Positions 30,833 to 46,540 of a stretch of 64,000 bases of DNA are shown in pieces. The position numbers were made by a program, and so were the translations under genes. This DNA comes from Rhizobiales bacterium 2SD (GTDB taxonomy: Bacteria; Pseudomonadota; Alphaproteobacteria; Rhizobiales; Beijerinckiaceae). Below the pieces are notes generated by a model. The model did not search any database, was not told the origin of the DNA, and saw only the letters and a program-made list of their open reading frames with translations. Position 1 is the stretch's first letter; the number at the start of each line of letters is the position of its first letter. The stretch is from assembly GCA_005502805.1 (NCBI GenBank), contig SCMY01000018.1:1-64000 (forward strand), given 5' to 3'.

Positions 30833-30927
30833 GCCCTCTTTTGCAAATCCCCAAATCTAATTGAAATCATTCGGCTTTCGGGCGTTTTGACCGCTTGGAA
30901 GCACCCGCATCCATTCGCCCGAACTCG

Positions 30928-30994
30928 TTGACAGCCGCCAAATCTGTTGGTCGTGATGTTGGTCAGCGAGGCCAACCAACGGGGCGAGACCAAC
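30928..30994 (+). promoter_or_regulatory. Integrase promoter region with GTTGGTC repeats
   Basis: A consensus -35 TTGACA lies at 30928-30933. GTTGGTC occurs at 30946 and 30958, and the inverted form GACCAAC at 30988, just before the integrase ATG. These could be regulator sites or integrase/excisionase arm sites. The -10 is not obvious. Confidence 0.45.
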
Positions 30995-30995
30995 A

Positions 30996-32219
30996 ATGCG
31001 TCTCACAGATGCGGCGATTCGAGGCGCGAGGCCCGGTGACGCTCGGCGAAAGCTGTCTGACGGTGGCGGTCTCCAGCTTTGGGTCGAGACCTCCGGCGCC
31101 CGGCTTTGGTCCTTGGCCTACCGTTTCGACGGCCGGCAAAAGCGGCTTGCCCTTGGCCCATATCCAGACGTCACGTTACGCGATGCCCGTGACCGTCGCG
31201 ACGATGCGAAGCGCCTCCTACGCGATGGCATCGATCCGGCGGCAAAGAAGCGCACCGATCGCGAGGCGCGCCAGGTGTCCAACGCGATCACGTTTCGCGT
31301 CGTCGGCAACGAGCTTCACGACAAGAAGCGGCTGGAGGGCAAGGCTCACCGCACGCTGGAAAAGGTTCGCTGGTTGCTCGATCTCGCCTATGTCGACCTC
31401 GGCGAGTTGCCGATTCGGGACATCAGCTCGGCTGATATCTTGGCAGCGCTGCGGACAATCGAGGCCCGCGGCCATCATGAGACAGCGCGGCGGCTGCGTG
31501 CGACGATGAGCGAGGTATTTCGGTTCGCCATCGCAACCGATCGGGCCTCGACCGACCCGACGCTGGCGCTCAGGGGAGCACTGATTGCCCCTACTGTGAC
31601 GCACAGGGCGGCCATCACCGACCGGAAGGGCTTCGGCGCACTCCTGCGGGCTCTGGACGGCTTCACAGGCCAACCCTCGACTAAGGCCGCACTCCTGCTC
31701 TCCGCCCTCCTCTATCAGCGCCCCGGCGAACTGCGGGCGGCGACGTGGGATGAATTCAATCTGGACGAGGCGGTCTGGACCATCCCGGCCGTCAGAATGA
31801 AAATGAGGAAGCCGCACGCCGTCCCCCTGCCCCGCCAGGCTATCGCCATCCTGCTCGACCTGAAGGCCATCACGGGCCGCGGTCGGCTCACCTTTCCCGG
31901 CATCGGCGCCAGGCCTCGGGAGGGGCAGCCGCTGGCGCAACGGCCGATCTCAGAGAACACGCTGAATGGCGCCCTGCGCCGGCTAGGATACGCCCAGCAC
32001 GAAATGTCGGCGCACGGCTTCCGCGCCAGCGCGAGCACCATGTTGAACGAAAGCGGACTGTGGGCAGCAGATGCGATTGAGGCGGCGCTTGCGCATCGGG
32101 ATCGCAACACCGTTCGCAGGGCCTATGCCCGCGGCGAACACTGGGATCAGCGAGTGAAAATGGCGCAGTGGTGGGCCGATCAGCTCGACGTGATGCGAGC
32201 GGAAAAGGCCGCGCAATGA
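30996..32219 (+). CDS. int: P4-type tyrosine recombinase / integrase
   Basis: The 407-residue enzyme has the N-terminal DUF4102 domain (1-90; LTDAAIRGARPG, DGGGLQLWV, GPYPDVTLRDAR). A SAM-like core-binding domain and the tyrosine recombinase catalytic domain follow. Catalytic residues are visible: R242 in QRPGELR, H340 and R343 in AHGFRAS, H367 in LAHRD and Y377 in RRAYARG. It integrates the element at the tRNA-Asn 3' end 165 bases upstream. Its stop overlaps the next ATG by four bases. Confidence 0.96.
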   Translation: MRLTDAAIRGARPGDARRKLSDGGGLQLWVETSGARLWSLAYRFDGRQKRLALGPYPDVTLRDARDRRDDAKRLLRDGIDPAAKKRTDREARQVSNAITFRVVGNELHDKKRLEGKAHRTLEKVRWLLDLAYVDLGELPIRDISSADILAALRTIEARGHHETARRLRATMSEVFRFAIATDRASTDPTLALRGALIAPTVTHRAAITDRKGFGALLRALDGFTGQPSTKAALLLSALLYQRPGELRAATWDEFNLDEAVWTIPAVRMKMRKPHAVPLPRQAIAILLDLKAITGRGRLTFPGIGARPREGQPLAQRPISENTLNGALRRLGYAQHEMSAHGFRASASTMLNESGLWAADAIEAALAHRDRNTVRRAYARGEHWDQRVKMAQWWADQLDVMRAEKAAQ

Positions 32220-32845
32220 GTCGGGTTTGGTATCTCCCAATCGAGGAAATCCACCGGAACGCTACCAAAGCTGCGCTGATCGCCCGACCGCGAAAGACGG
32301 ACAGGCATGTCGGGAGGCTATGGCTGCAGCATGCGACCGGCTCTGACCGCATCTATGAGAGTGAGCCGAAGCTGCGCGACCACCTGCGGTTCGCGTCAGA
32401 ACTCGGCCGGGAAGTTTACAGGACGCAGCTCCGGGACCACGCTTCTGCAAGAGACGTTGATCCGGAAACATACCGTCGTCACGCTCAAGCGGCGGAGGCC
32501 GCACTTAGGAAGCTGCTGGAGCACGGACCGATCGCTATCGGTGCGGAAGATCGCGACGAAGCTCTTTTTCGACACGGCAGGCTGCAGGATGCGATCGGAG
32601 AGATCGGCGCGCTAGCTGACGCCTTCCGAGGCAGGAAGAAAGGTTTGCATGACCCCGCGCTACGCGACGCGGCGGCGGCGATGTACGGTGTGCTGATTAT
32701 CGTCACGGATGACGAGGAGCAACTTCTCTCGGTATTCGAAGATGCTTGGATTGACGCCGGACTACCGGATCGAAGTGACTCTAAGGGTGGCACGAAATTC
32801 AGGACCTGGCTTCGCAAGTATCTGAAATCTAAAAAGATAATCTGA
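32216..32845 (+). CDS. Island hypothetical protein (209 residues)
   Basis: Starts at the ATGA overlapping the integrase stop, so it is translationally coupled. The product starts MSRVWYLPIEEIHRNATKAA and is mostly helical and charged, with a basic C-terminus (WLRKYLKSKKII). No family was recognised. Codon use is somewhat AT-richer towards the 3' end. Its place behind int suggests an element-specific role, for example in integration control, but nothing shows this directly. Confidence 0.7.
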   Translation: MSRVWYLPIEEIHRNATKAALIARPRKTDRHVGRLWLQHATGSDRIYESEPKLRDHLRFASELGREVYRTQLRDHASARDVDPETYRRHAQAAEAALRKLLEHGPIAIGAEDRDEALFRHGRLQDAIGEIGALADAFRGRKKGLHDPALRDAAAAMYGVLIIVTDDEEQLLSVFEDAWIDAGLPDRSDSKGGTKFRTWLRKYLKSKKII

Positions 32846-32941: not shown

Positions 32942-33199
32942 ATGAGTGCTCTAGTCTACTCTCTGAAAGATGTGGCCGATAAGCTTGGTTGCGGACTGTC
33001 GAAAATCTACACACTGATCGAGACCAAGAAGCTCGATGCCCGCAGAATGCTCGGGCGCACTGTCGTAACGAATGACGAGCTGCAGCGTTTCATCGCTGAT
33101 TTACCTCCGGTCGAGCTTGGCAAGTCTCACCTCAAGGGCAAGCCGAGGAAGGACAAGCCCCTTCGCGCGGGTGAACAACCTCGCCGAGGTGCGGCATGA
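32942..33199 (+). CDS. HTH (AlpA/excisionase-like) DNA-binding protein
   Basis: An 85-residue protein with a MerR/AlpA-type winged helix at its N-terminus: SLKDVADKLGCGLSKIYTLI, then a wing and TNDELQRFIADLP, followed by a basic tail. Such proteins act as excisionases or activators in P4-like elements. ATG follows CCCGGAGGCGC. It is the first of three genes linked by ATGA overlap or close spacing. Confidence 0.75.
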   Translation: MSALVYSLKDVADKLGCGLSKIYTLIETKKLDARRMLGRTVVTNDELQRFIADLPPVELGKSHLKGKPRKDKPLRAGEQPRRGAA

Positions 33200-33393
33200 T
33201 TGCCTCGACCGCTCCAGCGCCGCTTGCCGAGACGCTGGAGGAGATGATCGGATATCTTCGCCGTGCCGGTGTCGAGCCGACGCGGCTCGCACTAGCGTCG
33301 CTCGCGAGCGACCACGGCCTTGACGATGACGCGGTGCGCGCGCTGCTCACCGAATTCGATCGGGGGCCGCGCCATGAGCGCCGGATCGCATGA
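33196..33393 (+). CDS. Small island protein (65 residues)
   Basis: ATGA overlap with the upstream HTH gene. The product includes LAETLEEMIGYLRRAGVEPT and a LASDHGLDDDAVRALLTEFD stretch that looks like a small helical domain. Not recognised. Overlap at both ends supports expression. Confidence 0.6.
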   Translation: MIASTAPAPLAETLEEMIGYLRRAGVEPTRLALASLASDHGLDDDAVRALLTEFDRGPRHERRIA

Positions 33394-34291
33394 TGGCGGC
33401 CGGAGCAGGAAGAGGGCAAACTCGCGTCGCTCGATCGCCGCGAGGCGACGGGCGGCCCAACGTCGTTCTGAAATCATCCGGCTCGCGATGATCCGGCGCC
33501 AAAACTCAGTCTCGGTCGATTTCAGCCACTTCGCCTATGCGCTCGCATCAGCGATCGGCTCGGGGACGCCAGGGCGCTATCCGGTCGGCAGCGCGGGGCA
33601 GTGGAGAACCGCACCGGGCTTAGATGTTATGAGCCTGGCAGACGCTATGCGCGCGGCCGGTTTTCGAGGCCTTGACCTGAAAGGCGATGACGGTGACCGC
33701 CTCGCCAATGCGATCGAGGACTTCCATGCCCTCGCAGATGATCCGCGGCACTCCGGCCTAAGCGGCGCTGTGTTGGGCCGCTTGCTGCATCTCACCGCGG
33801 AAGAACGTACCCACTGCGATATCCGCTCCCTTGAAGCGACAGACGAGACGGTTGCCGATCGACGGGCGCGCGCTCGGGCGGGCAAACTGGAGCGCGACCG
33901 CGAGCGGCAGCGGGCGCGACGCGCTGGCACATCAAAGCCTCACGCTGCATCGGCGGAGCACCGAAAACCATGGGAGGCGGAAGGCATCTCGCGCTCTACA
34001 TTCTACAAGCGCCGTAGCAACGGACCACCCGCGCCGCCCGAAGTGGCAACATCGGCGACAAATCAGTCCGAAGGCAATTCGAACAAAGTGGTAAGTCGCG
34101 CGACAAAACAGTCTCGCGATCATCACGCGGCAACAACTGCGTGTCGGACTGATTTGTCGCGCACCCATGAAATAATTAGCTCAGGCGACGAAACAGTCCG
34201 AACCGTCGGACGTGTCGATCACCTGTCCGGAGTTGCAGCGGCGGGCGCCAGCCCCGCCGCCCCTCTTCCCGTCGATCGGAGATTACGATGA
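33374..34291 (+). CDS. Island protein with HTH-like C-terminal motif (305 residues)
   Basis: The ATG at 33374 lies inside the previous gene. The protein contains LTAEERTHCDIRSLEATDET followed by VADRRARARAGKLERDRERQ, then KPWEAEGISRSTFYKRR. An RRxR-rich linker followed by PWExxGISRxTxYRR is a pattern I associate with proteins common on alphaproteobacterial phage-like islands, probably DNA-binding. The central NAIEDFHALADDPRHSGLSG region is unassigned. The Ser/Thr-rich tail is likely disordered. Its stop overlaps the next ATG. Confidence 0.7.
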   Translation: MSAGSHDGGRSRKRANSRRSIAARRRAAQRRSEIIRLAMIRRQNSVSVDFSHFAYALASAIGSGTPGRYPVGSAGQWRTAPGLDVMSLADAMRAAGFRGLDLKGDDGDRLANAIEDFHALADDPRHSGLSGAVLGRLLHLTAEERTHCDIRSLEATDETVADRRARARAGKLERDRERQRARRAGTSKPHAASAEHRKPWEAEGISRSTFYKRRSNGPPAPPEVATSATNQSEGNSNKVVSRATKQSRDHHAATTACRTDLSRTHEIISSGDETVRTVGRVDHLSGVAAAGASPAAPLPVDRRLR

Positions 34292-34713
34292 GCAGCGACG
34301 TGCTCCGCTTCGAAATTGCGACGCTGACCGAGTTCGTGACGACGAGCGGCCGGCGCTATCTGCGTGGTGACATCGGCGGACTGCGGTTCACGATCGCCGA
34401 GGAGCCGGAGCGCGAGCCGGCAGCGGGTGGCGTTGCACGCTGGTCTGTCGTCGCGAGCCCTGCGCCTGGCAAAGCCCGGCATGTCATGGCGCCGGCGCCG
34501 CAAGGCGCGCCGGCTACAACCAAGGTGATCATGGCTCCGCAGATGAGCGAGGCCGCGCGCCTAGCTGCGGCTGCGGCGGATGTGATCGAGCGCAACGGCG
34601 CAATCCCGCCTCAGGGCGATCGGATCGACGATCTATTCCCGGCGCCCGCTCAGGCGGTACCGGACGATGAGCTGCAGGCCGCGATCGACTTGCTGCACCG
34701 GCCGATCACCTAA
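34288..34713 (+). CDS. Island hypothetical protein (141 residues)
   Basis: ATGA-coupled to the previous gene. The N-terminal 70 residues (VLRFEIATLTEFVTTSGRRY, LRGDIGGLRFTIAEEPE) look like a small beta domain; the rest is Ala/Pro rich. No family was recognised. It ends the first island operon; a gene-poor stretch follows. Confidence 0.6.
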   Translation: MSSDVLRFEIATLTEFVTTSGRRYLRGDIGGLRFTIAEEPEREPAAGGVARWSVVASPAPGKARHVMAPAPQGAPATTKVIMAPQMSEAARLAAAAADVIERNGAIPPQGDRIDDLFPAPAQAVPDDELQAAIDLLHRPIT

Positions 34714-35356: not shown

Positions 35357-35566
35357 ATGTCAGAAATCGAACTCGCTAAAACTCCTGAACTTCTGAGAAT
35401 CGACGAAGTCGCAGAAGTGCTCGACGTGACGACGCGCACTGCTCATCGCTTAGTCGCCGAGGGCGCGATTCCAGAGACTCGGATCGGCGGTTCCGTTCGC
35501 GTCCGCCGTGACGTGCTCAACGCCTACATCGCCGACCAGACAAAACGCAGGGAGCGCGCGGCGTGA
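35357..35566 (+). CDS. HTH_17/AlpA-like excisionase-type protein
   Basis: A 69-residue DNA-binding protein: LLRIDEVAEVLDVTTRTAHR then LVAEGAIPETRIGGSVRVRR and DVLNAYIA. This is the classic short helix-turn-helix of excisionases and AlpA-like activators. It is the first gene of the 4-nt-overlapping chain that leads to the protease, and its GTGA overlap starts the next gene. Confidence 0.85.
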   Translation: MSEIELAKTPELLRIDEVAEVLDVTTRTAHRLVAEGAIPETRIGGSVRVRRDVLNAYIADQTKRRERAA

Positions 35567-35778
35567 GCGAAACTGCCTTCATCGTCGCCAAGATCGGCCG
35601 CCATCCTTCCAACCGCATGTGGTTGACGTTCCAATCGTGCGCGCCGTGCTGGACCGCAGACAAGTCCCGTGCCGCCAGGTTCGGCGATGAAGTTTCCGCC
35701 CTTGCTCTGGTCGACCGCGACACAGGTGCTGCCTACGAGGGCGGCGTCACGTTTGAAGTCGAGCCGGCCACGACATGA
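35563..35778 (+). CDS. Small island protein (71 residues)
   Basis: GTG start overlapping the upstream TGA. The product (SETAFIVAKIGRHPSNRMWL then TFQSCAPCWTADKSR) has a C-x-x-C pair (CAPC) that may bind metal or be redox active. Not recognised. Its stop overlaps the ATG of the protease gene. Confidence 0.6.
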   Translation: MSETAFIVAKIGRHPSNRMWLTFQSCAPCWTADKSRAARFGDEVSALALVDRDTGAAYEGGVTFEVEPATT

Positions 35779-37004
35779 CAGGCGAATGGCCCTCTCAGCT
35801 CGCGAATCGTCCGCAACTCATCGCCGATGCCTATGCGATGGAGTTGCGTGACGCCTGGCTCGGCGCAGAAGCTGAGGCGCAAGCCATGGCTAGCGCGAGC
35901 CGATCGTTCGACAATTCGAGGGCTCGATACACGATCATCGACGGCGTCGCGGTGATCCCGATCAGCGGCGCGCTGTTGAATCGCCACGACTTCATCGGTG
36001 ATGGCTCGCCTTACACCAGCTATCCGGCACTGACACGCGAGGTACGGCGAGCTGCGGCCGACACAGCAATCCGCGGGATCGTGCTTACGGTGAACTCCCC
36101 CGGCGGAACTGCCGACGGCACCCTAGCGCCGGCCGCGGCGATCCGTGACGCGCGGAAGGTGAAGCCGGTGACTGCTTTCGTGGGCTCAATGGCCGCATCA
36201 GGCGGCTATTGGCTCGCTGCCCAGGCCAACGAGATTGTGCTTAGCGACGACATGAGCCGGGTCGGCTCGATCGGTGTCTACACCACTTTGCTCGGCTTCA
36301 GTCGCATGCTCGACCGAGCCGGCATCGACATCTCCGTAATCTCGTCCGGCGCTCATAAGGTCGACGAACACCCCCTCACGACCCTGTCAGACGATACCCG
36401 CTCCCGCATCCAGCAGGAGGTAGACGACCTTCGGGTGATGTTCGCGCGCGAGGTCGCCGCTGGCCGCCCCTCCCTCTCTGAGAAGGCCGTACTCGCCACC
36501 GAGGCCAAGATGTTCAGGGCGGTCGATCCGAAAAGCGGCCGCCGCCCTGCGATCGAGGCGAAACTGGCCGACCGCATGGGCTCGCTTCCCTCCGTAATCG
36601 CCGGCATAGCGGCCGGCGCTGCACCCAAACCCTCAAGGATCAAAGGAGCCACCACCGTGGACGAGACCCAAATCCGCGCCAGTGAGCGCACCCGCATCAA
36701 CGAGATTCTCACCTCGCAACATGCGGCCGGTCGGGAGGGGCAGGCTTCGTACCTGGCCCTCAACACCAGCATGACGGCCGCCGAAGCCGTCGGCTTGCTC
36801 GCCGCCAGCCCGAAGGTGGATGCTACTGCTGCCACGCCCGCCCCGGCCCAAACTTACGAGCAGCGAAAGGCCCAGGCTGGCGGCCTCAGCTACGTCGACA
36901 CCGGCGCCGCCACTCCGCAGGCCAAGGCCTCCGCCGGCTGGAGCAAGGCTGTCGCCGCGGCCAACAAGGGGCTCGGTTTGAATACCATGGGTGACCGTTC
37001 GTGA
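35775..37004 (+). CDS. S49-family (SppA/protease C-like) prohead protease with C-terminal scaffold-like domain
   Basis: The 409-residue protein has an S49 peptidase domain (about 50-285) with LTVNSPGGTADG (oxyanion region) and the nucleophile motif FVGSMAASGGYWLA (Ser142), plus the MSRVGSIGVY segment. In lambdoid phages such a protease, with its scaffold, matures the prohead. A linker leads to a C-terminal helix-rich region (about 297-345; RTRINEILTSQHAAGREGQA). No capsid gene is nearby to be its substrate, which is unusual. ATGA overlap with the preceding gene; GTGA overlap with the next. Confidence 0.92.
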   Translation: MTGEWPSQLANRPQLIADAYAMELRDAWLGAEAEAQAMASASRSFDNSRARYTIIDGVAVIPISGALLNRHDFIGDGSPYTSYPALTREVRRAAADTAIRGIVLTVNSPGGTADGTLAPAAAIRDARKVKPVTAFVGSMAASGGYWLAAQANEIVLSDDMSRVGSIGVYTTLLGFSRMLDRAGIDISVISSGAHKVDEHPLTTLSDDTRSRIQQEVDDLRVMFAREVAAGRPSLSEKAVLATEAKMFRAVDPKSGRRPAIEAKLADRMGSLPSVIAGIAAGAAPKPSRIKGATTVDETQIRASERTRINEILTSQHAAGREGQASYLALNTSMTAAEAVGLLAASPKVDATAATPAPAQTYEQRKAQAGGLSYVDTGAATPQAKASAGWSKAVAAANKGLGLNTMGDRS

Positions 37005-37216
37005 CCGACGCCGAGCGCGAGCTGGCGCGCATCACCGGCATCATCGGCGCGCCAGAGGCCGCGGGCCAGGAGAGGTTCGCCGTCCATCTCGCGCTGAGCA
37101 CGCGCTTCGGCATTGATGAAGCAGTTGCGTGCATGAACGCCAACTCGGCCGCTATTCCGTCGCCGGCAATTTCCGCAGCAATGGCAGAGCGCCAGACGAT
37201 CGAGGTGTTGCAGTGA
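37001..37216 (+). CDS. Small protein resembling the S49 protease C-terminal domain
   Basis: GTG start overlapping the protease stop. The 71 residues (ELARITGIIGAPEAAGQERF, AVHLALSTRFGIDEAVACMN) follow the pattern of the C-terminal region of the protease itself (TRINEILTSQHAAGREGQAS, YLALNTSMTAAEAVGLL). It therefore appears to be a duplicated, free-standing copy of the scaffold-like domain. A free scaffold or an accessory to the protease is inferred. Confidence 0.65.
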   Translation: MTDAERELARITGIIGAPEAAGQERFAVHLALSTRFGIDEAVACMNANSAAIPSPAISAAMAERQTIEVLQ

Positions 37217-37635
37217 CCACTTTCACCGTCGATCCCGATATCGCGCGCGGCTACCGCCACCGCGCCGACGCCGCGCTTTTGGCCATCAGGAGCCTCGCCG
37301 AGGCGGCGCGAGCCGCGCGCGATGGGCGTAATGAGCTGCTAAGCACAGCGCGCCGACGGACTCATTCCGGCGCAAAGCCACAGACGAGCGGCGGCGACCC
37401 CGAGGCGCTCGACTGGCTGACCGAAACGGAACGCGCCCGCTTCGACAAGATCACCGCCGAGATTGCACGTGATGACGCGGACCTCGCGGCTGCAGAGAGG
37501 GCCGGCGCCTACGCCAGGTCGATCGGCCACGCCGTCGCCGATCACCTCAAGACACTCGAACGCGCCGAGGAGGCCAGAACCCGCGCGGAGAACGGGCGCC
37601 GTCCCGCGCTGATGGAAGGGACCGATATCCGATGA
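37213..37635 (+). CDS. Island hypothetical protein (140 residues)
   Basis: GTG start overlapping the previous TGA. The protein is helical, with FTVDPDIARGYRHRADAALL and ETERARFDKITAEIARDDAD, and has coiled-coil character. No family was recognised. Position and size could fit a head-completion or scaffold role, but there is no supporting motif. Confidence 0.6.
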   Translation: MTTFTVDPDIARGYRHRADAALLAIRSLAEAARAARDGRNELLSTARRRTHSGAKPQTSGGDPEALDWLTETERARFDKITAEIARDDADLAAAERAGAYARSIGHAVADHLKTLERAEEARTRAENGRRPALMEGTDIR

Positions 37636-38165: not shown

Positions 38166-38351
38166 ATGCGCAGCGTCGCCCCAAGTACAGGCGACGCATT
38201 GCGAGCCGGCGGGCGGCCAGCCCCTGCCCGGCCGGCACCGTTTCCAATCGCACTGCCGCCTGAGACATCGGCCAGCGACTGTGCGAGCCCGCCGCCTCTC
38301 ATCCCGACCGGGCGGCGGGCACCCTTCCCTCACGACTGGAGCCCGCCATGA
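38166..38351 (+). CDS. Possible small ORF with a GC hairpin, low confidence
   Basis: An ATG directly after the previous stop opens a 61-codon frame ending in a TGA that overlaps the ATG of the tail-chaperone gene. The product is Pro/Ala/Arg rich and looks non-globular. The segment also contains an inverted repeat (GCCCGCCGCC ... GGCGGCGGGC, about 38285-38320). It may be untranslated leader rather than a gene. Confidence 0.3.
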   Translation: MRSVAPSTGDALRAGGRPAPARPAPFPIALPPETSASDCASPPPLIPTGRRAPFPHDWSPP

Positions 38352-38755
38352 GCAAAAAAACCGCGCCAGCCGTCGTGCTCGGCGGCAATCGAACCCGCGA
38401 CATTCCCTTGACCTATCCCGCCAAATTCGAGGGCGTGATCTACGACAAGGTCACGATCCGTCGAATGTCTCAGGACGAGATGCAGGCCTTCATCGCCGCC
38501 GCCGCAGGCGATGACGATATCCGCTTGGCGATGCACGATTTGCCCGATGTCGTGTTCGACGCACTCGATCCCGACGACGCGGACGCAGTCAACGCGGCCA
38601 TGCTCGACATGCTGCCCCGCAAGCTCAAGCGCGCCCTGGCCAACGCCGCGCCCGCCGAACTGCCGCCGGCAGACCCCTTCGTCACCGCCACCGACGCACT
38701 CAACGCCGTAGCTGACGCAGCCGCCGACCTGGCAGCGGCGCCTAAACCCGCCTGA
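38348..38755 (+). CDS. Phage tail assembly chaperone-like protein
   Basis: A 135-residue acidic protein directly before the tape measure gene, which is where tail assembly chaperones are encoded in siphophages. It begins MSKKTAPAVVLGG, has the short beta-rich NRTRDIPLTYPAKFEG and IYDKVTIRRMSQDEMQAF region, and ends in an Ala/Pro tail. The call rests on size, composition and position. A run of seven A lies at codons 3-4; no frameshift extension of the end is evident. Confidence 0.65.
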   Translation: MSKKTAPAVVLGGNRTRDIPLTYPAKFEGVIYDKVTIRRMSQDEMQAFIAAAAGDDDIRLAMHDLPDVVFDALDPDDADAVNAAMLDMLPRKLKRALANAAPAELPPADPFVTATDALNAVADAAADLAAAPKPA

Positions 38756-38785: not shown

Positions 38786-41629
38786 ATGGCCCGCAGCATC
38801 CTTGCCCAGCTCGTTGTTGCGCTTCAGGACAACGCATCCGCGCCAGCCAAGGCGCTGTCTGGCACCCTGAAGGGATTGGAGAAGAACGCCGTCGACTTCG
38901 CGAAGACTATGAGCGGCGCAAGGTGGGGTGATGCGTTCCGAAAGCAAGCCGGCCGCAGCGAGGCATTCGCGAAAGACCTAGACCGCGCCAGGACGAGCGC
39001 CCGCGACCTCGGCGCAGCGCTGGCAAATGCGTCGTGGGGCTCGAAGTTCTCAGATCAGCTCGCAAAGTTGAAGGTCGCGCCCCGCGAATTCGACGCCATC
39101 CGCCGGTCTTGGCAGCAGCTGCAACGTGAGCTGGCAACTCCGTCGGGCTGGCGCGGCGCCGCCGGCTCTTTGGGCGCAACGACCGAATGGAAAAAGCGCC
39201 AGCTCCTCGAACTTGCATCCGTTCGTGCTGAGATGCATCGCCTTCGCCAGGAAAGCGAGGCTCCTCTTCGGCTCCTACGCCGAGGTGGTCGCACCGTAGC
39301 CATGGCTGCCGGCGTTTATGGCGGTGCCCATGTCGTCAACCGAGCGGGTCGCGGCCTGGCCATCGCGGGCGCCTCAGAGAAGCGCGAAGGCTTTCGCCAG
39401 AACCTTGCCGGCCTAACCGAACCCGAGCGCAAGGCTATCGTTGCGGAATCGAACCGCTTGACGGGCCTCTACCCCTCTATTTCAAGCGTCGACCTGCAGG
39501 AATTGGCCCGCGGTGCCAGGAATCTGACCGGCGACGTGCGGCGAGGCCTTGATCTCTTGCCGGACATCGCCCGCGCGCGTGTCGCGATCCAATCGGCGAC
39601 CGGCGAGCCCGGTGACGGCGATCTTGATCGGTTGATGAAAGCCGGGGATATCGCCGGCTTGCAAGATAATCCGGATCGCTTCCGCGCCTTCCTGGAGAAC
39701 TTCACGAAGGCCGTTCAGGTCGAGGGCAAACAGCTCAACGCGTCCGACTATTTGGCATTTTTCAAGCGCGCCAAGATGGCCGGCGCCGGATTCGGCGACG
39801 ACTTCATTGCCGCCGCCATGCCAACGCTCAGCCAAGAACTTGGCGGCGCATCGGCGGGCACTGCGCTCGCCACGGCCTATCAGCAGTTCGTATCCGGCCG
39901 CGCGAAGAAAGAGGTCATCGCAGCTCACAAAGAAGCGGGCCTTCGCGACAAGAGCGGAAATCTTGTCGATCGCCAGGAATTTATTGCCAATCCGTTTGAA
40001 TGGATTCAGAAACATATCCGTCCGCTTCTGGAGAAAAGCGGCGTCGATATGAACAACAATCAGGCGATGCTCGACTTTCTGACACCGCTCACGTCTGACC
40101 GAAATGCTGCGGAGGTGGTCTCCAAATCCATCTTGCAGGCCGATCAAATCAGGCGAAATCAACGGATGTATAAGGGCGCCAGGGGCCTCGCTGGCGCCGA
40201 GGAAGCCCGCCACGAGGACCCTTTCGTCGCTGGCGCTGGCGCCATCAACGCGTTGAAGAACGCCGCCGCCGAACTCGCCGGCCCCGTCATGCCCGCCGCA
40301 ACATCCGCGCTGAACACTTTTGCCGATACCATGAACGGCCTGGCCAAGCGTCTGCGCGAGGACCCCTCGATCGCAAAGCAGGCCAGTGCGACCGCGACCG
40401 GCGCGGCAGCAGGTGGGGGGCTCGGCGGCGGCATCATGGCCCTGCGCGCCCTATGGCAGGGCCGCGGCATGGGCGGCGCCCTGGCGGGCCTGCTCAAGGG
40501 CGGGGCCATAGGCGGCCTTGGCGGAGGTATCCTCGGCTACGGCGCCAGCAAGCTCGGGGATTGGCTCTCATCGGCAGCGGGCAATGTCGGCAAGGTCGCG
40601 GCCGGCCGGCACTGGAAGCCGCAGGCTGGCGGCGAGCAAGCTGACCTCGAACGTCAGTTGCAGGATGCGCAGGCGCGTATCGCCAGCATCAAGGCGAAGA
40701 CACACCCCTCCCGAGCCAACGAGCCGAATGCTGAGGTCGATCGCCTTGAGCTTGAGGCGGCAGACCTCCGCAACAGAATCGCAGCCGGCCGCCAGACGGT
40801 ACTCCCTCGCGCTGATCATGAAGCGAGGCGCGGCCGCGGCTTCGCGGGCATCGGCCAATCGATCGAGCCCGGCCCGGATTATCAGCAAGCCGCGACTGCG
40901 GCCGCCGACGCCAAAGCCAAGCCGCGTTTCAGGATCGACAACCTTCCGGAGCGTGAGCAAGGCAGCGCGGCGTCCAACAGCCTGTTCGCTCCTCAGAAGC
41001 TCGCTGAGCAATCGCCTGACCCGCGCTTGACAAAGACTGCCGCCCCTTCCGGTCTCTTCAGTCCGGCCAGCGTACTGACACCCCCGGCAGCAGCGCCGGC
41101 GCCAACTGTCGATGCAGCTGCGGCGGCCAGTAATGGCCAGGCCGCCGGTTCGGCACTTGGCACTGGAGTCGCCGCCGGCATCGCCGCGCAAGCGCCTGCC
41201 GCAGAGGCTCAGGGCCGGTCCCTCATGGAGCGGATCAAGGCCCTGTTCGCTGGTGGTGTCACGGTGCCCGTGAACGTCCAGCAGAGCGGCGGCGCTGCGG
41301 CTCCCGCCGCGGCTTCATCTCCTGCCGTTCCCGCCCGCGCTTCCGGCGGCAGTGTCTATGCCGGTGGCCTCTACCAGATCAACGAATACGACCAAGAGTA
41401 TTTTTCCCCGGCAGAGAATGGCACGATCGTCGATCCGCGGCGCATGGGTGGAGGCGGCGGCAGCTCCGGCGGTGGACCGGTCTCGGTCAATATGGGCGGC
41501 ATCAACCTCTCGATCTCGGGTGCGTCCGATCCACAGGCAGTCGTCGAACAGGTGGTGGCTGCGATCAACGATCGCGTGCAGGAGGCCGCTCGCGCCGCGT
41601 TCTCCGACATGGGGGTCGAACTTGGTTGA
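38786..41629 (+). CDS. Phage tail tape measure protein
   Basis: The 947-residue protein has long helical and Ala-rich segments and phage-type glycine-rich hydrophobic stretches at about 540-600 (ATGAAAGGGLGGGIMALRAL, LLKGGAIGGLGGGILGYGAS). The C-terminus is GGLYQINEYDQEYFSPAENG, a hallmark of siphophage tape measure proteins from alphaproteobacteria. It sets tail length and is ejected into the host. At a typical 1.5 Angstrom per residue this would define a tail of about 140 nm. No tube, terminator or baseplate genes follow, which is odd. Confidence 0.9.
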   Translation: MARSILAQLVVALQDNASAPAKALSGTLKGLEKNAVDFAKTMSGARWGDAFRKQAGRSEAFAKDLDRARTSARDLGAALANASWGSKFSDQLAKLKVAPREFDAIRRSWQQLQRELATPSGWRGAAGSLGATTEWKKRQLLELASVRAEMHRLRQESEAPLRLLRRGGRTVAMAAGVYGGAHVVNRAGRGLAIAGASEKREGFRQNLAGLTEPERKAIVAESNRLTGLYPSISSVDLQELARGARNLTGDVRRGLDLLPDIARARVAIQSATGEPGDGDLDRLMKAGDIAGLQDNPDRFRAFLENFTKAVQVEGKQLNASDYLAFFKRAKMAGAGFGDDFIAAAMPTLSQELGGASAGTALATAYQQFVSGRAKKEVIAAHKEAGLRDKSGNLVDRQEFIANPFEWIQKHIRPLLEKSGVDMNNNQAMLDFLTPLTSDRNAAEVVSKSILQADQIRRNQRMYKGARGLAGAEEARHEDPFVAGAGAINALKNAAAELAGPVMPAATSALNTFADTMNGLAKRLREDPSIAKQASATATGAAAGGGLGGGIMALRALWQGRGMGGALAGLLKGGAIGGLGGGILGYGASKLGDWLSSAAGNVGKVAAGRHWKPQAGGEQADLERQLQDAQARIASIKAKTHPSRANEPNAEVDRLELEAADLRNRIAAGRQTVLPRADHEARRGRGFAGIGQSIEPGPDYQQAATAAADAKAKPRFRIDNLPEREQGSAASNSLFAPQKLAEQSPDPRLTKTAAPSGLFSPASVLTPPAAAPAPTVDAAAAASNGQAAGSALGTGVAAGIAAQAPAAEAQGRSLMERIKALFAGGVTVPVNVQQSGGAAAPAAASSPAVPARASGGSVYAGGLYQINEYDQEYFSPAENGTIVDPRRMGGGGGSSGGGPVSVNMGGINLSISGASDPQAVVEQVVAAINDRVQEAARAAFSDMGVELG

Positions 41630-42149
41630 CTCGCTGCGGCGTCGGACAGGCTACAAGGCGTGGCTCTTCAACGAGATCGTCAAGCGTTCGCCAGTCTCAC
41701 GCCGCGATCTCATTGCTGACGGCCGCGCCCGCGGCTTCATCGAGAGGGATGCGCTAGGCCTTCACAAATTTCACGAGGTCTTATTGCGCCTTAGCGAGAG
41801 TGGCGTCGTGCTTTTCAACACCAAGACGGTGTGGTGGACAGGCCGCGCCCTCCCACCTCGCGGCATCGGCGTGGCTGCAAGCAACCGAGCGCACTACGCC
41901 GCCAGGGGCGACCGTTCTGCCCTGGCTCGCCTTCAGGCCGAAGAGCTAGCGAAGATCGTCGCACGCCGCCAGGCCATCCTATGGGCGCTCCGGCCGGCCG
42001 ATGCGCCGCCCGTGTTTCCACTCCCGAACATCGCCGCCCGCATTCGGAGGCCGCCACGTCGCAGACTGGAGGGCACCCCGAGACTGAAGGAAATCCTTGT
42101 CCAGCTGAAGGGCGATCGTCTGCGCTCCGCAATCGAGAGAGCATCATGA
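41622..42149 (+). CDS. Island hypothetical protein (about 175 residues)
   Basis: A TTG codon inside the end of the tape measure gene begins LVDSLRRRTGYKAWLFNEIV and KRSPVSRRDLIADGRARGFI. The start is uncertain; GGGGGTCGAAC precedes it. A central helical region followed by VLFNTKTVWWTGRA and a basic tail gives the look of a winged-helix nucleic-acid protein. Not recognised. It overlaps the next gene by four bases. Confidence 0.55.
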   Translation: MVDSLRRRTGYKAWLFNEIVKRSPVSRRDLIADGRARGFIERDALGLHKFHEVLLRLSESGVVLFNTKTVWWTGRALPPRGIGVAASNRAHYAARGDRSALARLQAEELAKIVARRQAILWALRPADAPPVFPLPNIAARIRRPPRRRLEGTPRLKEILVQLKGDRLRSAIERAS

Positions 42150-42541
42150 CCGCCACTCAGGCCACGCCCGGCAAGCGCGGAAAGGCGAGGACGCCTTCCC
42201 GGAAGTATCTTGCACCCGAATTGATGAAGGCCGCCTTCCTCGCTGGCCAGGGCTACACGGCCGGCGACATCGCCTTACAGATCGGCAACACGACCGGCGC
42301 CAAGATCGCGAGTCAGCTTCATCGCCATGGCGTTCACACGCTCCGCAAAGGTGATGATGAGATTATGCAGCTTCGCTGGTCTCGACGCGACCAGCGCGCC
42401 CTCGATGCGCTCGCGGACAAGCGCAGTAGGAGCGCGGCGGACCTCGCCGTGATCACGCTTCGCATCCTGCTCGCCGAGCCGGTCCTCTTCGCCAACCTGC
42501 TCGAAGAAGTTGAGATGATCGAGGATGCGCGCCATGCTTGA
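42146..42541 (+). CDS. HTH-containing island protein (131 residues)
   Basis: ATGA overlap with the previous gene. The core PELMKAAFLAGQGYTAGDIA and LQIGNTTGAKIASQLHRHGV resembles the helix-turn-helix of GcrA-like regulators, and the basic N-terminus (KRGKARTPSRKY) would suit DNA binding. The GcrA link is a pattern-level impression only. Confidence 0.55.
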   Translation: MTATQATPGKRGKARTPSRKYLAPELMKAAFLAGQGYTAGDIALQIGNTTGAKIASQLHRHGVHTLRKGDDEIMQLRWSRRDQRALDALADKRSRSAADLAVITLRILLAEPVLFANLLEEVEMIEDARHA

Positions 42542-43108: not shown

Positions 43109-43540
43109 TCAGTCCCGCCTTGCTTTACGCCGTGCATTCTTGATCATGGCTGGCTCCTCCGTGAGAGCGTCGCGTCGGGTGGCCTTCTCATCCTCGCTGG
43201 CGTCCACGCCTATCAAGACCCGATCGGCAGCCTTATCCGCCTTTAGGCGGGCATGGTCTGCTCCCGCTTGACGCCGCTCCTCAGAGGCCGGCGCAGCTGG
43301 CGCGGCCGTCGCGCCCTTCCGAAGCCTCACTCCCGGCCCCTCGCCATTTTCGGGGACGAAGATAACGCCAGCGGCTTCCAGCGCCTTCTGGATCGCCGTC
43401 AACGTCGATGCCTTCGGATCGGCGGCGCCACGTTCGATATTGTTGAGAGCGGTTGTTGAAATGCCCGCGGCCTCGGCTAAAGCTGCCTGGGTCATGCCGA
43501 TCATGGCGCGAGCGCCACGGATTTGAGATGGCTGTATCAT
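43109..43540 (-). CDS. XRE-family repressor-like regulator
   Basis: The 143-residue protein has an N-terminal XRE helix-turn-helix: MIQPSQIRGARAMIGMTQAA then LAEAAGISTTALNNIERGAA. A segment DPKASTLTAIQKALEAAGVI with FVPENGEGPGVRLR is common in prophage XRE regulators. The C-terminal 60 residues are Ala/Arg/Asp rich. It diverges from the Tat-signal gene, and its promoter lies in the operators at 43560-43585. The start is probably leaderless. It is the likely lysogeny repressor of the element. Confidence 0.88.
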   Translation of the reverse strand: MIQPSQIRGARAMIGMTQAALAEAAGISTTALNNIERGAADPKASTLTAIQKALEAAGVIFVPENGEGPGVRLRKGATAAPAAPASEERRQAGADHARLKADKAADRVLIGVDASEDEKATRRDALTEEPAMIKNARRKARRD

Positions 43541-43634: not shown

Positions 43635-43646
43635 CGGAGCCCTTCA

Positions 43647-43985
43647 ATGTCGAACACTACCGTTCCGGCAGCCGCCCCCGGCTTGCCTTCAATCACCGCC
43701 GTCGATCGCCGCACATTCCTCCGCGGAGTCGCCCCCGCGGCCGCTCTTGCCGTCGCGGCGGCGCCCGTGTCTGCAGCCGTCTCACCCGAGGAACAAGCCC
43801 GCCACGCCTGGCAGGAATTCTCTGCAGCTATGCGCGCGCTGACGGTCGACGCTGATGGCTGGACGATCACCGCCTCTGAAAATCGGCAACGCGGAAACCG
43901 CATGGAACTGCGGCGTGTCGAGATGTGCGTTGATCCGCTCTTCCCGAACTTGCGCGTCGAAAACCATCGCAAGATCGAGCTGTAG
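43647..43985 (+). CDS. Small Tat-signal protein on the island (112 residues)
   Basis: The N-terminus has a consensus twin-arginine signal: DRRTFLRGVAPAAALAVAAA followed by PVSAA, with cleavage likely near residue 48. The mature part is only about 60 residues (HAWQEFSAAMRALTVDADGW, TITASENRQRGNRMELRRVE). Twin-arginine export of so small a protein on a phage-like element is unusual. It is the only gene clearly under the operator pair. Function is unknown. Confidence 0.75.
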   Translation: MSNTTVPAAAPGLPSITAVDRRTFLRGVAPAAALAVAAAPVSAAVSPEEQARHAWQEFSAAMRALTVDADGWTITASENRQRGNRMELRRVEMCVDPLFPNLRVENHRKIEL

Positions 43986-44108
43986 ATCAGCGCTCGATGC
44001 CGCGGCCCTAGACCGGCTGCAGCTCTCCGGCGATCGTGCCGACAGTGAAAGGCCAGGCCGCTCCGGAAGGGGCGGCTTTGCCTGTAGAGCAACGGGGCTG
44101 AAACCGTC

Positions 44109-44324
44109 ATGACCGCAACCAACCGACGCCCGCCCTGGCCAGACGTGACCTTGGAGAATGTCCGCGAGGCTCTGATCATCGCGGCCGAGCTGGTAGACCT
44201 CTATGGCGAGAAAGCCCTTCCGTTGTTCAAGCGGCTTGAGGCTGAATATCATGAGATGCAGCGCCGAGGCTCCGCCATGGAGCGGGTACGGCAGATTGCC
44301 CGCGGAGAGGTGGACCTTGATTGA
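44109..44324 (+). CDS. Small island protein, paralog B (71 residues)
   Basis: Shares the core VREALIIAAELVDLYGEKAL and PLFKRLEAEYHEM with the 99-residue protein at 42788. ATG follows GGGGCTGAAACCGTC. It is shorter at the C-terminus (MERVRQIARGEVDLD). Likely a duplicated element-specific gene; function unknown. Confidence 0.6.
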   Translation: MTATNRRPPWPDVTLENVREALIIAAELVDLYGEKALPLFKRLEAEYHEMQRRGSAMERVRQIARGEVDLD

Positions 44325-44629
44325 CCGCGCAAGCCAATTGCATCCGCCGGTGCAAGCCTGCGGGCCTCTCCGCTTGGAGGGCGCCCCGGCGAGCGGCATA
44401 GTCGACCGGGTCGGTGGATGACATGACGACAGAGTTTTATGCGCTGTTCGACATTGCAGAGGGGATTTCCGGAGCCTTTGCTAGGGTAGCATCGGTTGAT
44501 GGCGTTCTCCTCGTTATCAACGCTGAAGCTGGCCGGCCGCTGGCCCGCCTCTGCGAATGTGCCCCTGCTAATCCCTACGTAAGCGAGTAGACCGAGAAGG
44601 ACGAAGACACAGGCAATAGCCTCACCCAC
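44249..44629 (-). CDS. Possible third gene of the minus-strand cassette, small membrane-anchored protein
   Basis: A GTG preceded by GGGGGAG opens a 126-codon frame 27 bases after the stop of the four-helix membrane gene. It begins MGEAIACVFVLLGLLAYVGI, a strong membrane anchor, then a soluble part with several cysteines (CYPSKG, LCNVEQ, LCRHV). It overlaps the 3' part of the gene at 44109-44324 on the other strand, which weakens the case. If real, it would be the third component of the cassette. Confidence 0.3.
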   Translation of the reverse strand: MGEAIACVFVLLGLLAYVGISRGTFAEAGQRPASFSVDNEENAINRCYPSKGSGNPLCNVEQRIKLCRHVIHRPGRLCRSPGRPPSGEARRLAPADAIGLRGQSRSTSPRAICRTRSMAEPRRCIS

Positions 44630-44656
44630 TGATCTCCCCCGAGCTTGCCTTTAGCG

Positions 44657-45202
44657 CTAATCTTTGACCGCTTTACTGGAAGAGGAACGCATTGCCTCCA
44701 AACGCTGATCAGCCAGCGCCCGTTCCTTTTCCTTTTGCTCAGCTTGGCCGGCTGAATCAATAATCGTTCTCTGCAGCCTTACAATATCAAAATCCCTCCA
44801 AACGACATATGCCATTCTTGCAGCGCATAAAGCCAACAATCCACCTGCCACAGTAAGAATATTTCTGACTATATCTTCATGAAGGGCCTGCAAAGCAGGC
44901 TGCCCAGCCACTTGCAACCCAAGGAGTCCAGCCAACGCCATAGCTAAACACCCACAAATGATAACATACTCGAAGGTTACGTCCTCGATCTTCTGAGTGA
45001 GCGAAAGCCGTTGGCTAAGCTCGACGCTTTTCCAATCGAGGGTGGGCATACCTCGATTCAAGCGGACAAACACGGCCGCCATCATGATCGAAAGTACCGT
45101 GACGATCGCCTGCACATTGGGCAAAAATTGCTCAAGCGTGACGTATCGCCGGAAGATGATAGCTCCGGCCGCGATCAACACGAGCGTGCCGAGAAGCGTC
45201 AT
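44657..45202 (-). CDS. Four-helix membrane protein with C-terminal coiled coil, cassette partner
   Basis: The 181-residue protein has hydrophobic segments at about 1-19, 29-46, 78-97 and 114-133. A charged coiled-coil tail follows (RLQRTIIDSAGQAEQKEKER, ALADQRLEAMRSSSS). Between segments two and three lies a polar region (DWKSVELSQRLSLTQKIEDV). Its ATG overlaps the upstream stop by four bases, so the two are coupled. The local sequence is AT-richer than the rest of the island. A membrane effector of a two-gene defence or toxin system is a reasonable hypothesis; no known family was recognised. Confidence 0.7.
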   Translation of the reverse strand: MTLLGTLVLIAAGAIIFRRYVTLEQFLPNVQAIVTVLSIMMAAVFVRLNRGMPTLDWKSVELSQRLSLTQKIEDVTFEYVIICGCLAMALAGLLGLQVAGQPALQALHEDIVRNILTVAGGLLALCAARMAYVVWRDFDIVRLQRTIIDSAGQAEQKEKERALADQRLEAMRSSSSKAVKD

Positions 45203-46239
45203 GCTGCTGGAATCTTTCCGTCTCGAACGAAACGCGAGTACACCTCCTGTAACTGGTCCGCCACATTGTCAAAATCAAGGAAGTTACTCCCCTCCTGTGC
45301 GAGGTCGAACGGCATGCGGGTACGAAGAATCGCATCTTCGTCCGACACTTTTCCGTCCTTCCCTTCAACCTGGACTTTGCCCTCGGTCAGGTCGGCAAGC
45401 TCGTTGGCAAGGGCGCCCATTTGCTGCCGCGATTCCTGGGTCCGGCGCCCCCTGATTTTAACCGTAGCGTCGACAGCCAGGTATTCCTCAGGCCCAAGGC
45501 TCTCGACTAACGATTCGGTCCGAACCTCACCTAGAAGCGCTTTTACAACCGGCAATGCCTGAGCGAACTCGACCATTTTTTCCGACACCCGCCGCGCCGT
45601 CGAAACAGTTCGAGCACTATCCGCGGCTGCCGGCCGTACGGCCATCGGCTGGGCGGCGCGGCCACTTACTCGCAGGCTTTTGATGTCCCCGATATCACCG
45701 GCAACTTGCGATTTGTCGAACTCCGCCTGGATAGTGATGTCGGTGTCTGCCGGCAGCGCCCCACCGGCTCGCTTCAGCAGCCAATCAATATAATCTTTGA
45801 AATTGTCGGAACTCATCGACTGAGTTTTGACGAAAAGAATATGATCTCCAATCGCAAGCCAGTACAGCATTCCTTTAATAAATTGCGACCCCTTAGGTGC
45901 CGTGTTTTCTTGAAGATCATAAATTTGAGCGACAGTAATATTGGAAAGCTGGGCCTCTGAAGCCTGAAGTCGCAAAAGTGCTTGCAATCCACTACTTTGA
46001 ACTAGGCACATTTCTCCAAAAATAGCCCCTTGTAGATCAGCTATTTTGTTTAAAACAACTTGCTTACTATCATCTCCTCCAAGCGAGAAAACGCGATCCT
46101 GCGCACGCTTCCACAGCGTGATGCCCGCCCCGTCTTTACGGTCGAGTGCCGAGCGACAAAGCGCTTCAAGGTTTGATTTCGAGGGCGCGGGCTTGGCAAT
46201 GAAGCGACGGTAGTGAACCATATGATAGGCAGTCGCCAT
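45199..46239 (-). CDS. Soluble partner protein of the cassette (346 residues), unknown family
   Basis: Starts with ATG after GGGGATGGAAG, at MATAYHMVHYRRFIAKPAPS. The product is soluble, with a first part (about 1-110) rich in K/R, a middle region (GMLYWLAIGDHILFVKTQSM, SSDNFKDYIDWLL) that looks like an alpha/beta domain, and a C-terminal part containing VDATVKIRGRRTQESRQQMG. I know no close family. Coupled to the membrane protein and placed at the far end of the element, it fits cargo such as a sensor or nuclease-type component, but no catalytic motif was seen. Confidence 0.7.
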   Translation of the reverse strand: MATAYHMVHYRRFIAKPAPSKSNLEALCRSALDRKDGAGITLWKRAQDRVFSLGGDDSKQVVLNKIADLQGAIFGEMCLVQSSGLQALLRLQASEAQLSNITVAQIYDLQENTAPKGSQFIKGMLYWLAIGDHILFVKTQSMSSDNFKDYIDWLLKRAGGALPADTDITIQAEFDKSQVAGDIGDIKSLRVSGRAAQPMAVRPAAADSARTVSTARRVSEKMVEFAQALPVVKALLGEVRTESLVESLGPEEYLAVDATVKIRGRRTQESRQQMGALANELADLTEGKVQVEGKDGKVSDEDAILRTRMPFDLAQEGSNFLDFDNVADQLQEVYSRFVRDGKIPAA

Positions 46240-46522
46240 CTTCCATCCCCAGCGTCTCTTGTACAACTCTGAGTATGAGCAAGATTCTCTGCTGCGTACA
46301 AATGTTTCATCTAGGGCAGCTCAAAACTGTCAGCATTCCTGGATTAGGCGGCCGGCATTGTTAGGCGGCCTCGCATCGTGGTAGACGGCTCGCCGTGGGG
46401 GATGAGGAACCCGAGATTCACAGCCTCTCACAAAATTTGGTTGTTGGTATATTGGTGGTCAATCTGTCGCAGAGACGCGCAGATATGGCTTAAGTATCAA
46501 CTCATTAGTCCTTTATGTTGCC

Positions 46523-46540
46523 TCCTGCTCCGGGAGCCAG
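46523..46540. repeat. attR core, 18-bp copy of the tRNA-Asn 3' end
   Basis: Exact repeat of 30815-30832. It marks the right end of the element. The 280 bases to its left (46240-46520) hold no gene, but have a repeated TTAGGCGGCC at about 46344-46370 that may be arm-type integrase or excisionase sites. Confidence 0.93.

What the first reader, a model, noticed from the sequence alone, without database searches (positions are those of the whole stretch)
30833..46540. Compact tRNA-Asn island with phage protease and tape measure but no capsid, portal or terminase
Seen: exact 18-bp att repeats, P4-type integrase, S49 prohead-type protease, tail-chaperone-like gene, 947-residue tape measure and an XRE repressor, with most genes overlapping by 4 nt and intact. 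Known: a siphophage needs terminase, portal, capsid, tube and baseplate, and none is recognisable here. Inference: this is a phage satellite that borrows a helper's particle and imposes its own tail length and protease, or a prophage stripped while its remaining genes stayed under selection. A tape measure without tail genes is the striking point.
Basis: partly seen in the sequence, partly recalled or inferred. Interest (0 to 1): 0.75.

Follow-up and report, generated by a model that had tools for sequence, protein, structure and literature searches.

The report
Phage satellite with own tail ruler
A 15.7-kb mobile island in a Bosea bacterium looks like a parasite of phages that carries its own tail-length ruler and head-building protease but no recognisable shell or packaging motor, and it belongs to a wider, apparently undescribed family of such islands.

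Summary
An island at 30833-46540 sits at a tRNA-Asn gene between exact 18-bp repeats. It carries an integrase, an S49 head protease with a scaffold-like tail, a tail-assembly chaperone, a 947-aa tape measure protein (TMP) and a repressor. No large terminase, portal, capsid, sheath or tube was found. All ten Bosea loci with a long flank match have the empty site.

It is not a decaying prophage: another Bosea carries most of the cassette in nearly the same order at 39-59% identity, dN/dS 0.23-0.52.

Gene g12 (37632-38165) is a hallmark. Its profile led to integrase-bearing islands in the same order and beyond; of 20 examined, 13 carry a TMP and 13 a head protease or scaffold-like gene. Their TMPs fall into several sequence groups, some shared with complete prophages. 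The TMP/chaperone pair here is P2-like (contractile), not siphophage.

Best reading: a phage satellite that borrows a helper's particle but supplies its own assembly proteins for tail length and head. Vibrio PLE satellites do this for tails (PMC12987554, 2026); cf-PICIs carry putative tmp genes. This family looks unrelated and adds head proteases or scaffolds. Helper, mobilisation and particle composition are untested.

The parts
30757..30831 (+). tRNA-Asn(gtt), integration site
   Evidence: ARAGORN; intact and directly followed by the right flank in all ten long-match Bosea loci
30815..30832 (+). attL, 18-bp core
46523..46540 (+). attR, 18-bp core
   Evidence: empty sites
30996..32219 (+). 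P4-type tyrosine integrase, 407 aa
   Evidence: PF13356/PF22022/PF00589; phrog_1
32216..32845 (+). g2, unknown, 209 aa
   Evidence: no family
32942..33199 (+). g3, AlpA/excisionase-like HTH_17
   Evidence: PF12728 2e-7, phrog_66 2e-6
33196..33393 (+). g4, unknown, 65 aa
   Evidence: nothing above cut-off
33374..34291 (+). g5, unknown, 305 aa; no recognised replication gene in this member
34288..34713 (+). g6, unknown, 141 aa
35357..35566 (+). g7, second HTH_17/excise-type protein; faint similarity to small terminases (phrog_57 E=0.0015), not counted as one
35563..35778 (+). g8, unknown, 71 aa
35775..37004 (+). S49 head maturation protease with C-terminal scaffold-like domain, 409 aa
   Evidence: phrog_53 1.2e-79; C-terminus matches phrog_17040, phrog_8399, phrog_8940
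37001..37216 (+). g10, 71 aa, second copy of the protease's scaffold-like piece
   Evidence: phrog_17040 7.5e-8; 40% identity over 42 aa to the S49 C-terminus
37213..37635 (+). g11, family protein paired with g12
   Evidence: 44% identity to L018/L035 g11; remote copies before g12 in L033, L041, L042
37632..38165 (+). g12, hallmark gene of the satellite family, 177 aa, helical model
   Evidence: profiles A1/A4/A6/A11; model pLDDT 72, pTM 0.45, no fold match at E 0.001
38348..38755 (+). tail assembly chaperone (P2 gpE-like), 135 aa
   Evidence: PF10109 5e-4; E=1e-9 to the ORF before the TMP of prophage L019
38786..41629 (+). tape measure protein, 947 aa
   Evidence: phmmer 5.6e-57 to the TMP of prophage L019; phrog_10574; 56% identity to the L018/L035 TMP
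41622..42149 (+). g16, unknown, conserved in L035; start TTG uncertain
42146..42541 (+). g17, unknown; relatives near a TMP-like gene in loci L028 and L029; not seen in L035
42525..42770 (+). g18, conserved in L035
42788..43087 (+). g19, conserved in L035 (57% over 72 aa)
43109..43540 (-). XRE/CI-like repressor
   Evidence: PF01381, phrog_3
43647..44590 (+). g21 (43647-43985), g22 (44109-44324), g23 (44414-44590), small genes; g22 and g19 match the same L035 gene
44657..45202 (-). g24, 181 aa, looks membrane-associated (by eye), operon with g25, possible cargo
   Evidence: no family
45199..46239 (-). g25, 346 aa, possible anti-phage cargo
   Evidence: phrog_3482 2e-60 (unknown function); 25% match over half its length to a gene labelled 'DefenseFinder protein' in Acinetobacter phage phi1_092021; no PADLOC hit

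Best explanation
The island is an intact phage satellite of an apparently undescribed family in Alphaproteobacteria. It integrates at tRNA-Asn with its own integrase and is held by an XRE repressor (shown: sequence and empty sites; inferred: function). When a contractile-tailed helper grows in the cell, it excises and is packaged with the helper's terminase, portal, capsid, tube, sheath and baseplate (inferred). It supplies its own TMP with its chaperone, so that particles carrying it get a tail built on its own ruler, and its own protease-scaffold plus an extra scaffold-like piece (g10), which steers or resizes the helper's head (inferred). In the family g12, with g11 where recognised, stays while the TMP and the protease or scaffold are swapped, presumably to match different helpers.
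For: Discrete insertion with 18-bp att and ten empty sites. Same cassette in another Bosea at 39-59% identity, dN/dS 0.23-0.52 for 9 of 9 genes compared (S49 only its C-terminal 121 codons), TMP 0.24. g12 islands: integrase in 19 of 20, TMP in 13, head protease or scaffold-like gene in 13, both in 10 (recount). L142, found last by g12 alone in another order of the class, again has 44-bp repeats, an integrase and a TMP-like gene. Satellite TMPs fall into seven clusters at phmmer 1e-20 and four at 1e-10; the window's clusters with that of complete prophage L019 and L042's is 56% identical over 312 aa to that of a complete Bosea prophage in G061. Proteases differ likewise: S49, ClpP-type, scaffold-like only. 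Small-terminase profile hits in L042 and L095 (phrog_57 4e-16, 1.6e-18) and homologues in L082, L083, L084 suggest redirected packaging. Defence genes in or beside members: PtuA-like pair in L033, type II R-M in L083. Precedent: PLE TMP replaces the helper's in PLE virions and deleting tmp lowers transduction (PMC12987554 sections 8-9).
Against: No excision, induction, particle or helper shown. The window has no recognised replication protein and no clear small terminase. Its genome shows no GpA-type large terminase and no relative of the L019 sheath, so no resident helper of that type is visible; the assembly is in 29 contigs and other terminase types were not searched. The window TMP is only about 29% identical to the nearest prophage TMP found. 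7 of 20 g12 islands show no TMP and 7 no protease or scaffold, so neither is obligatory; several scaffold calls are weak (E 1e-4 to 1e-6). A chaperone gene was recognised only in the window and L035. L087 has its own portal and L041 a tail-fibre-like gene. In L088 the TMP and S49 lie up to 6 kb from g12 with no integrase in view. The role of g11/g12 is unknown.
Confidence: 0.7

Rival explanations
1. Remnant of a P2-like prophage that lost head, packaging and most tail genes; what remains is drifting or kept for other reasons.
For: S49, TAC and TMP occur in the same order in a complete prophage (L048+L019: terminase, portal, S49, decoration, capsid, sheath, TAC, TMP).
Against: All 24 called genes open, exact att and empty sites, dN/dS well below 1 against a relative with the same gene set, though with dS near saturation, similar partial sets with different TMPs and proteases in other bounded islands, no g12 match in 50,697 phage records with two g12 queries.
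Confidence: 0.08
2. Anti-phage decoy: the TMP/TAC and the protease-scaffold poison an infecting phage's tail and head assembly, and the island spreads by other means.
For: Tail assembly is a known defence target (Rta in PMC12987554, sections read; PMC11364771 and PMC10884400, seen only as listing and start of abstract); defence genes lie in or beside two members.
Against: Small terminases, integrase, AlpA-like and replication genes in members point to own transfer; a full-length TMP with a paired chaperone is more than a decoy needs (inference). Both functions can coexist, as in PLE11.
Confidence: 0.12
3. Satellite that forms its own particle with unrecognised capsid genes among g2, g5, g6, g8, g11, g12.
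For: Several island genes have no family; cf-PICIs make own capsids (recalled); L087 has a portal; two TMP loci (L021, L022) may carry a capsid fusion (by eye).
Against: The longest of these unknown genes is 305 aa; g12 is helical in a moderate-confidence model; no terminase or portal recognised in the window; the same library recognises them in a control prophage.
Confidence: 0.06

Closest known systems
PLE satellites of Vibrio cholerae (PMC12987554; passages plus sections 8 and 9 read)
   Same: Integrated satellites with tmp and tac genes that borrow most other virion parts; TMP shown in PLE virions, tails about 10 nm shorter, tmp deletion cuts transduction
   Different: Different hosts; here an S49/ClpP protease or scaffold is often paired with the TMP, and g12 is the hallmark; no PLE gene was compared directly
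cf-PICIs and PLE-like elements with putative tmp (legend of Extended Data Fig. 10 of PMC12987554, seen as a passage)
   Same: Putative TMP in a satellite
   Different: cf-PICIs encode own capsid and packaging genes (recalled); none recognised in the window
P4-like satellites and PICIs
   Same: P4-type integrase, AlpA-like HTH, tRNA site, about 15 kb, use of helper particles (inferred)
   Different: No P4/PICI packaging gene recognised; TMP and head protease instead (their gene lists recalled)
AH14b of Pseudomonas ANT_H14 (PMC4936722; passages read)
   Same: 16.8-kb satellite packaged with a helper; carries one tail-assembly gene
   Different: No TMP or protease of AH14b appears in the passages read
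Prophages of Bosea and kin: L048+L019 (G084), L131/L132 (G061), L136 (G018, cut)
   Same: Source type of S49/ClpP, TAC and TMP
   Different: They have terminase and portal, the first two also capsid and sheath; g12 not seen in 50,697 phage records

Membership tests
Phage satellite (general) | Discrete integrated element with own integrase and regulation | tested here: met
Phage satellite (general) | Lacks genes for a complete virion | tested here: met
   control
Phage satellite (general) | Mobilised by a helper phage | not testable with these tools
   no induction data
PLE | tmp and tac genes in the satellite | tested here: met
PLE | Homology to PLE genes / ICP1 dependence | not tested
   no PLE sequence fetched; hosts unrelated
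cf-PICI | Own capsid, portal and terminase genes (recalled) | tested here: not met
P4-like | P4-type integrase and AlpA-like regulator (recalled) | tested here: met
P4-like | Primase-helicase; Sid/Psu-type capsid genes (recalled) | tested here: not met
   no primase and no such capsid gene recognised in the window; primases or helicases do occur in other members
Decayed prophage | Broken genes or relaxed selection | tested here: not met
g12 satellites (this report) | g12 in an integrase-bearing island | tested here: met
   19 of 20 loci
g12 satellites (this report) | g11 directly before g12 | tested here: met
   window, L035, L033, L041, L042 by alignment and L082 by profile; not recognised in the other 14 of 20 loci

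The most novel reading that the evidence does not exclude
A widespread family of alphaproteobacterial satellites, marked by g12, tends to carry both size rulers of a tailed virion, the head scaffold/protease and the tail tape measure, and little else of it; the rulers were captured repeatedly from different phages so that each satellite builds chimeric heads and tails to its own dimensions from a helper's parts.
Probability: 0.5. Interest if true: 0.85.

Novelty: new variant of a known kind. Interest (0 to 1): 0.76.

Why it matters
Satellites were thought to take whole tails from their helpers; the first shown exception (PLEs) was published in March 2026 with the mechanism that favours the satellite's TMP left open. 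A second, apparently unrelated family in which TMP carriage is common and TMPs are swapped between lineages would make this a broader strategy and gives a natural series (g12 islands with and without TMP, with S49, ClpP or free scaffold) for asking why a satellite needs its own ruler. It also gives a profile (g12) for finding satellites in an order for which two literature searches returned no paper.

Tried and rejected
Siphophage origin: rejected, tail relatives are P2-like. Hidden capsid/portal/terminase: 124 proteins from eight bounded islands were scanned together (61 families at 1e-4, only 25 listed), then 104 of them again without likely DNA-metabolism, regulator and toxin genes (27 families at 1e-3, 25 listed); none of those listed is a large terminase, portal, capsid, sheath, tube or baseplate; the two unlisted are single-member at about 7e-4 or worse. 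Integrases, TMPs, main replication genes and a few others were left out of these sets; most were scanned elsewhere, but L084 6708-8474 (588 aa) never was: it matches no reference gene of mine, terminases included, and no PDB chain. Genes were picked by a codon-position rule, so some may be missed. Islands not bounded by repeats were tested only against terminase, portal, capsid, sheath, tube and gpD of my own prophage loci (only L087's portal matched). Resident helper: no GpA terminase and no L019-type sheath in the own genome. Viral contigs with g12: nothing. Genome contigs with the TMP pair: 2 loci only, because of the strict pattern step. g12 fold search: uninformative. PADLOC and NCBIfam on island unknowns: nothing useful. 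L020-L022 (other TMP loci) were read only in part and are not counted as members. L094 dropped (weak hit, no integrase); L043 dropped (3.4-kb contig).

Counting rule: the 20 g12 loci are window, L033, L035, L041, L042, L082-L093, L095, L142, L143. Not looked at: four more G082 copies, a second G469 copy, G285, G518. TMP seen in window, L035, L041, L042, L083-L088, L093, L095, L142. Protease or scaffold-like: S49 in window, L035, L082, L083, L087, L088, L095; ClpP-type in L041, L092; scaffold-like only in L033, L042, L084, L093. Integrase not seen in L088; that of L086 is in two short ORFs. L087 carries a portal and is still counted.
Full report
What is there. The window is contig C9 of a 6.27-Mb genome. 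The genus is taken to be Bosea, because the same-genus genome G018 holds the contig titled 'MAG: Bosea sp.' (same length and genes); the order name Hyphomicrobiales is recalled. The island runs from the 3' end of tRNA-Asn (30757-30831) to 46540, with an exact 18-bp repeat at 30815 and 46523 and GC 0.626 against 0.66-0.67 around it. A search with the right flank matched 36 of 67 Bosea genomes, own included; the ten other loci with long matches each have the intact tRNA-Asn directly before the flank; the short matches were not examined. So the island is a discrete insertion.

Gene content: P4-type integrase; g3, AlpA-like; unknown g2, g4-g6, g8; g7, a second HTH_17 protein; S49 head protease whose C-terminus matches scaffold profiles; g10, a second copy of that scaffold-like piece; g11; g12; a gpE-like chaperone; a 947-aa TMP; g16-g19; XRE repressor; small genes; and a two-gene operon on the other strand that may be defence cargo. 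All 24 called genes are open and 10 of 23 neighbours overlap by 4 nt. ASGG at residue 141 and a lysine in SGAHK at 191 of the S49 protein fit a Ser-Lys dyad (motif recalled).

Is the TMP a TMP? Its profile scores are modest, but the TMP of the complete prophage L019, which lies between a chaperone and gpU/gpD-position genes, has no PHROG hit at all at 1e-3. The window TMP matches it over 614 residues at 29% (phmmer 5.6e-57), and the chaperones match too (33%, E 1e-9). The 7 phage records matched are Burkholderia phages KS5, Mana, AP3 and Carl1 at 22-24% (P2-like recalled). L019 has a sheath gene (phrog_23), so the tail type is contractile.

What is missing. PHROG scans covering the 24 genes found no large terminase, portal, capsid, sheath, tube or baseplate (limits of the lists under Tried and rejected). 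As control, 10 proteins of prophage L048/L019 gave terminase (7e-181), portal (1e-90), S49 protease, decoration, capsid (6e-60), sheath (2e-47) and a gpD-like tail protein (4e-62); its tube-position protein is labelled head closure by PHROGs and its TMP is missed, so a divergent tube could also be missed.

Not decay. In Bosea MAG SCN18 (L018/L035) the end of the contig holds S49 (partial), g10, g11, g12, TAC, TMP, g18, g16, g19 and XRE, in nearly the window's order (g16 and g18 are exchanged, g17 not seen), with another integrase. dN/dS by NG86 is 0.23-0.52 for nine of nine genes, 0.24 for the TMP, with dS 1.2-2.0, i.e. near saturation, so the ratios are rough.

A family. The g12 alignment was widened in steps, own genome always among the counts: A1 found 2 of 397 genomes of the order, A4 2 of 385 of the class and 4 of 67 Bosea genomes, A6 17 of 397 of the order, A11 5 of 372 of the class. 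g12 has no Pfam or PHROG family (best E 0.075) and no match in 50,697 phage records with two members as queries. Fourteen regions from the A6 search were fetched; 12 of 14 have an integrase hit (not L094, a weak hit, and not L088, whose contig ends nearby). Long direct repeats bound L084 (54 bp), L085 (45), L086 (44), L089 (23), L090 (50), L093 (55) and L142 (44); all but L142 lie at a tRNA gene. L041 has only a 15-bp repeat, at a tRNA-SeC, which is weaker evidence. No bounding repeat was found for the other g12 loci.

Of the 20 g12 loci counted, 13 hold a TMP: seven confirmed by PHROGs (L083-L088, L093), L041 and L042, L095 and L142 by phmmer only, window and L035 as above. Thirteen hold a head protease or scaffold-like gene (the scaffold-only cases rest on E 1e-4 to 1e-6). 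Ten have both. Seven show no TMP: L033, L082, L089-L092, L143. Two bounded TMP islands without a recognised g12 were also found: L036 (Bradyrhizobium, 50-bp repeat at tRNA-Pro, helicase, S49 directly before the TMP) and L023 (45-bp repeat at tRNA-Arg).

Repeated capture. Phmmer clustering of 23 TMPs at 1e-20 gives nine clusters, seven of them with satellite TMPs: window, L035, L036, L023, L041, L095 with L019/L029; L042 with L025; L083/L084/L087; L085; L086; L088 with L030; L093. At 1e-10 there are five clusters, four with satellite TMPs, so the deeper number of origins is uncertain (L142 not included). Of these partners only L019 is shown here to be in a complete prophage; L025 lies about 12 kb from a GpA terminase; L029 and L030 were not resolved, and L030 has a relative of g5 and may itself be a satellite. 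L042's TMP is 56% identical over 312 residues to that of a complete Bosea prophage in G061 (terminase, portal, ClpP-type protease, capsid, sheath, tube, gpD). L041's ClpP is 52% identical over 201 residues to that prophage's, and L036's S49 60% over 296 to one beside a terminase and portal in G018. So g12 stays while the borrowed parts change.

Mechanism. Best reading: a satellite with a partly own assembly programme. TMP plus chaperone set the tail; protease-scaffold and g10 act on the helper's head; small terminases in several members (phrog_57 in L042 and L095; homologues in L082-L084) would redirect packaging. Shown: gene content, insertion, selection in one pair, recurrence. Inferred: excision, helper use, incorporation of the TMP, head effect. 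Suitable phages occur in the genus: L019-type sheaths in 8 of 67 and GpA terminases in 17 of 67 Bosea genomes (a few weak hits in each), neither in the window's genome.

Known context. PMC12987554 (Nature, March 2026; [quoted passage not shown] Eight searches with satellite terms plus tape measure, chimeric tail, cf-PICI, Rhizobiales, Hyphomicrobiales or rhizobial genera listed no other title or abstract start on TMP-bearing satellites or on satellites of this order; most listed papers were not opened. PMC11080155 on Hyphomicrobiales prophages mentions 'satellite' once in another sense and no tape measure. The library lacks bioRxiv and most subscription papers. Hence: new variant of a known kind.

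Limits. Gene calls in relatives are mechanical; some g12 hits are remote (20-30% identity) and rest partly on context; many assemblies are drafts; no experiment was possible.

Noticed in passing
L087 (G229:C1), 7810-9387: g12 island that also encodes a full portal protein (phrog_21 4e-94) beside S49 and TMP; no terminase or capsid recognised among the genes tested.
   Followed up: partly
L022/L045 (G042:C30) and L021/L046 (G050:C13): Two Bosea loci with 66-73% identical TMPs next to a primase-like gene and, about 3 kb on, a 625-aa gene that looks by eye like a prohead protease-capsid fusion; perhaps capsid-forming satellites.
   Followed up: no
L020 (G101:C3), 391-10963: By eye a Cas9 and Cas1 gene pair and a CRISPR-like array lie directly beside a window-type TMP and an integrase.
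   Followed up: no
L033 (G141:C7), 634-2993; L083 (G322:C1), 16114-18212: Defence genes in or beside g12 islands: a PtuA-like ATPase plus partner (PADLOC PDC-M01), and a type II restriction-modification pair.
   Followed up: partly
L082 (G226:C1), 12640-15113: Genes that look by eye like an IS66-type insertion sit directly after the small-terminase-like gene of a g12 island, where other members have the TMP.
   Followed up: no
L026 (G000:C5): The window's own genome holds another TMP-like gene (814 aa) of a different group, perhaps in a prophage; a candidate helper not examined.
   Followed up: no
L030 (G049:C1), 5297-12648: A relative of island gene g5 (36%, E 4e-10) lies upstream of a TMP-like gene in another Bosea; possibly a further satellite.
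   Followed up: no
window 44657-46239: Two-gene operon at the lower-GC right end of the island; g25 belongs to an uncharacterised phage family (phrog_3482).
   Followed up: partly
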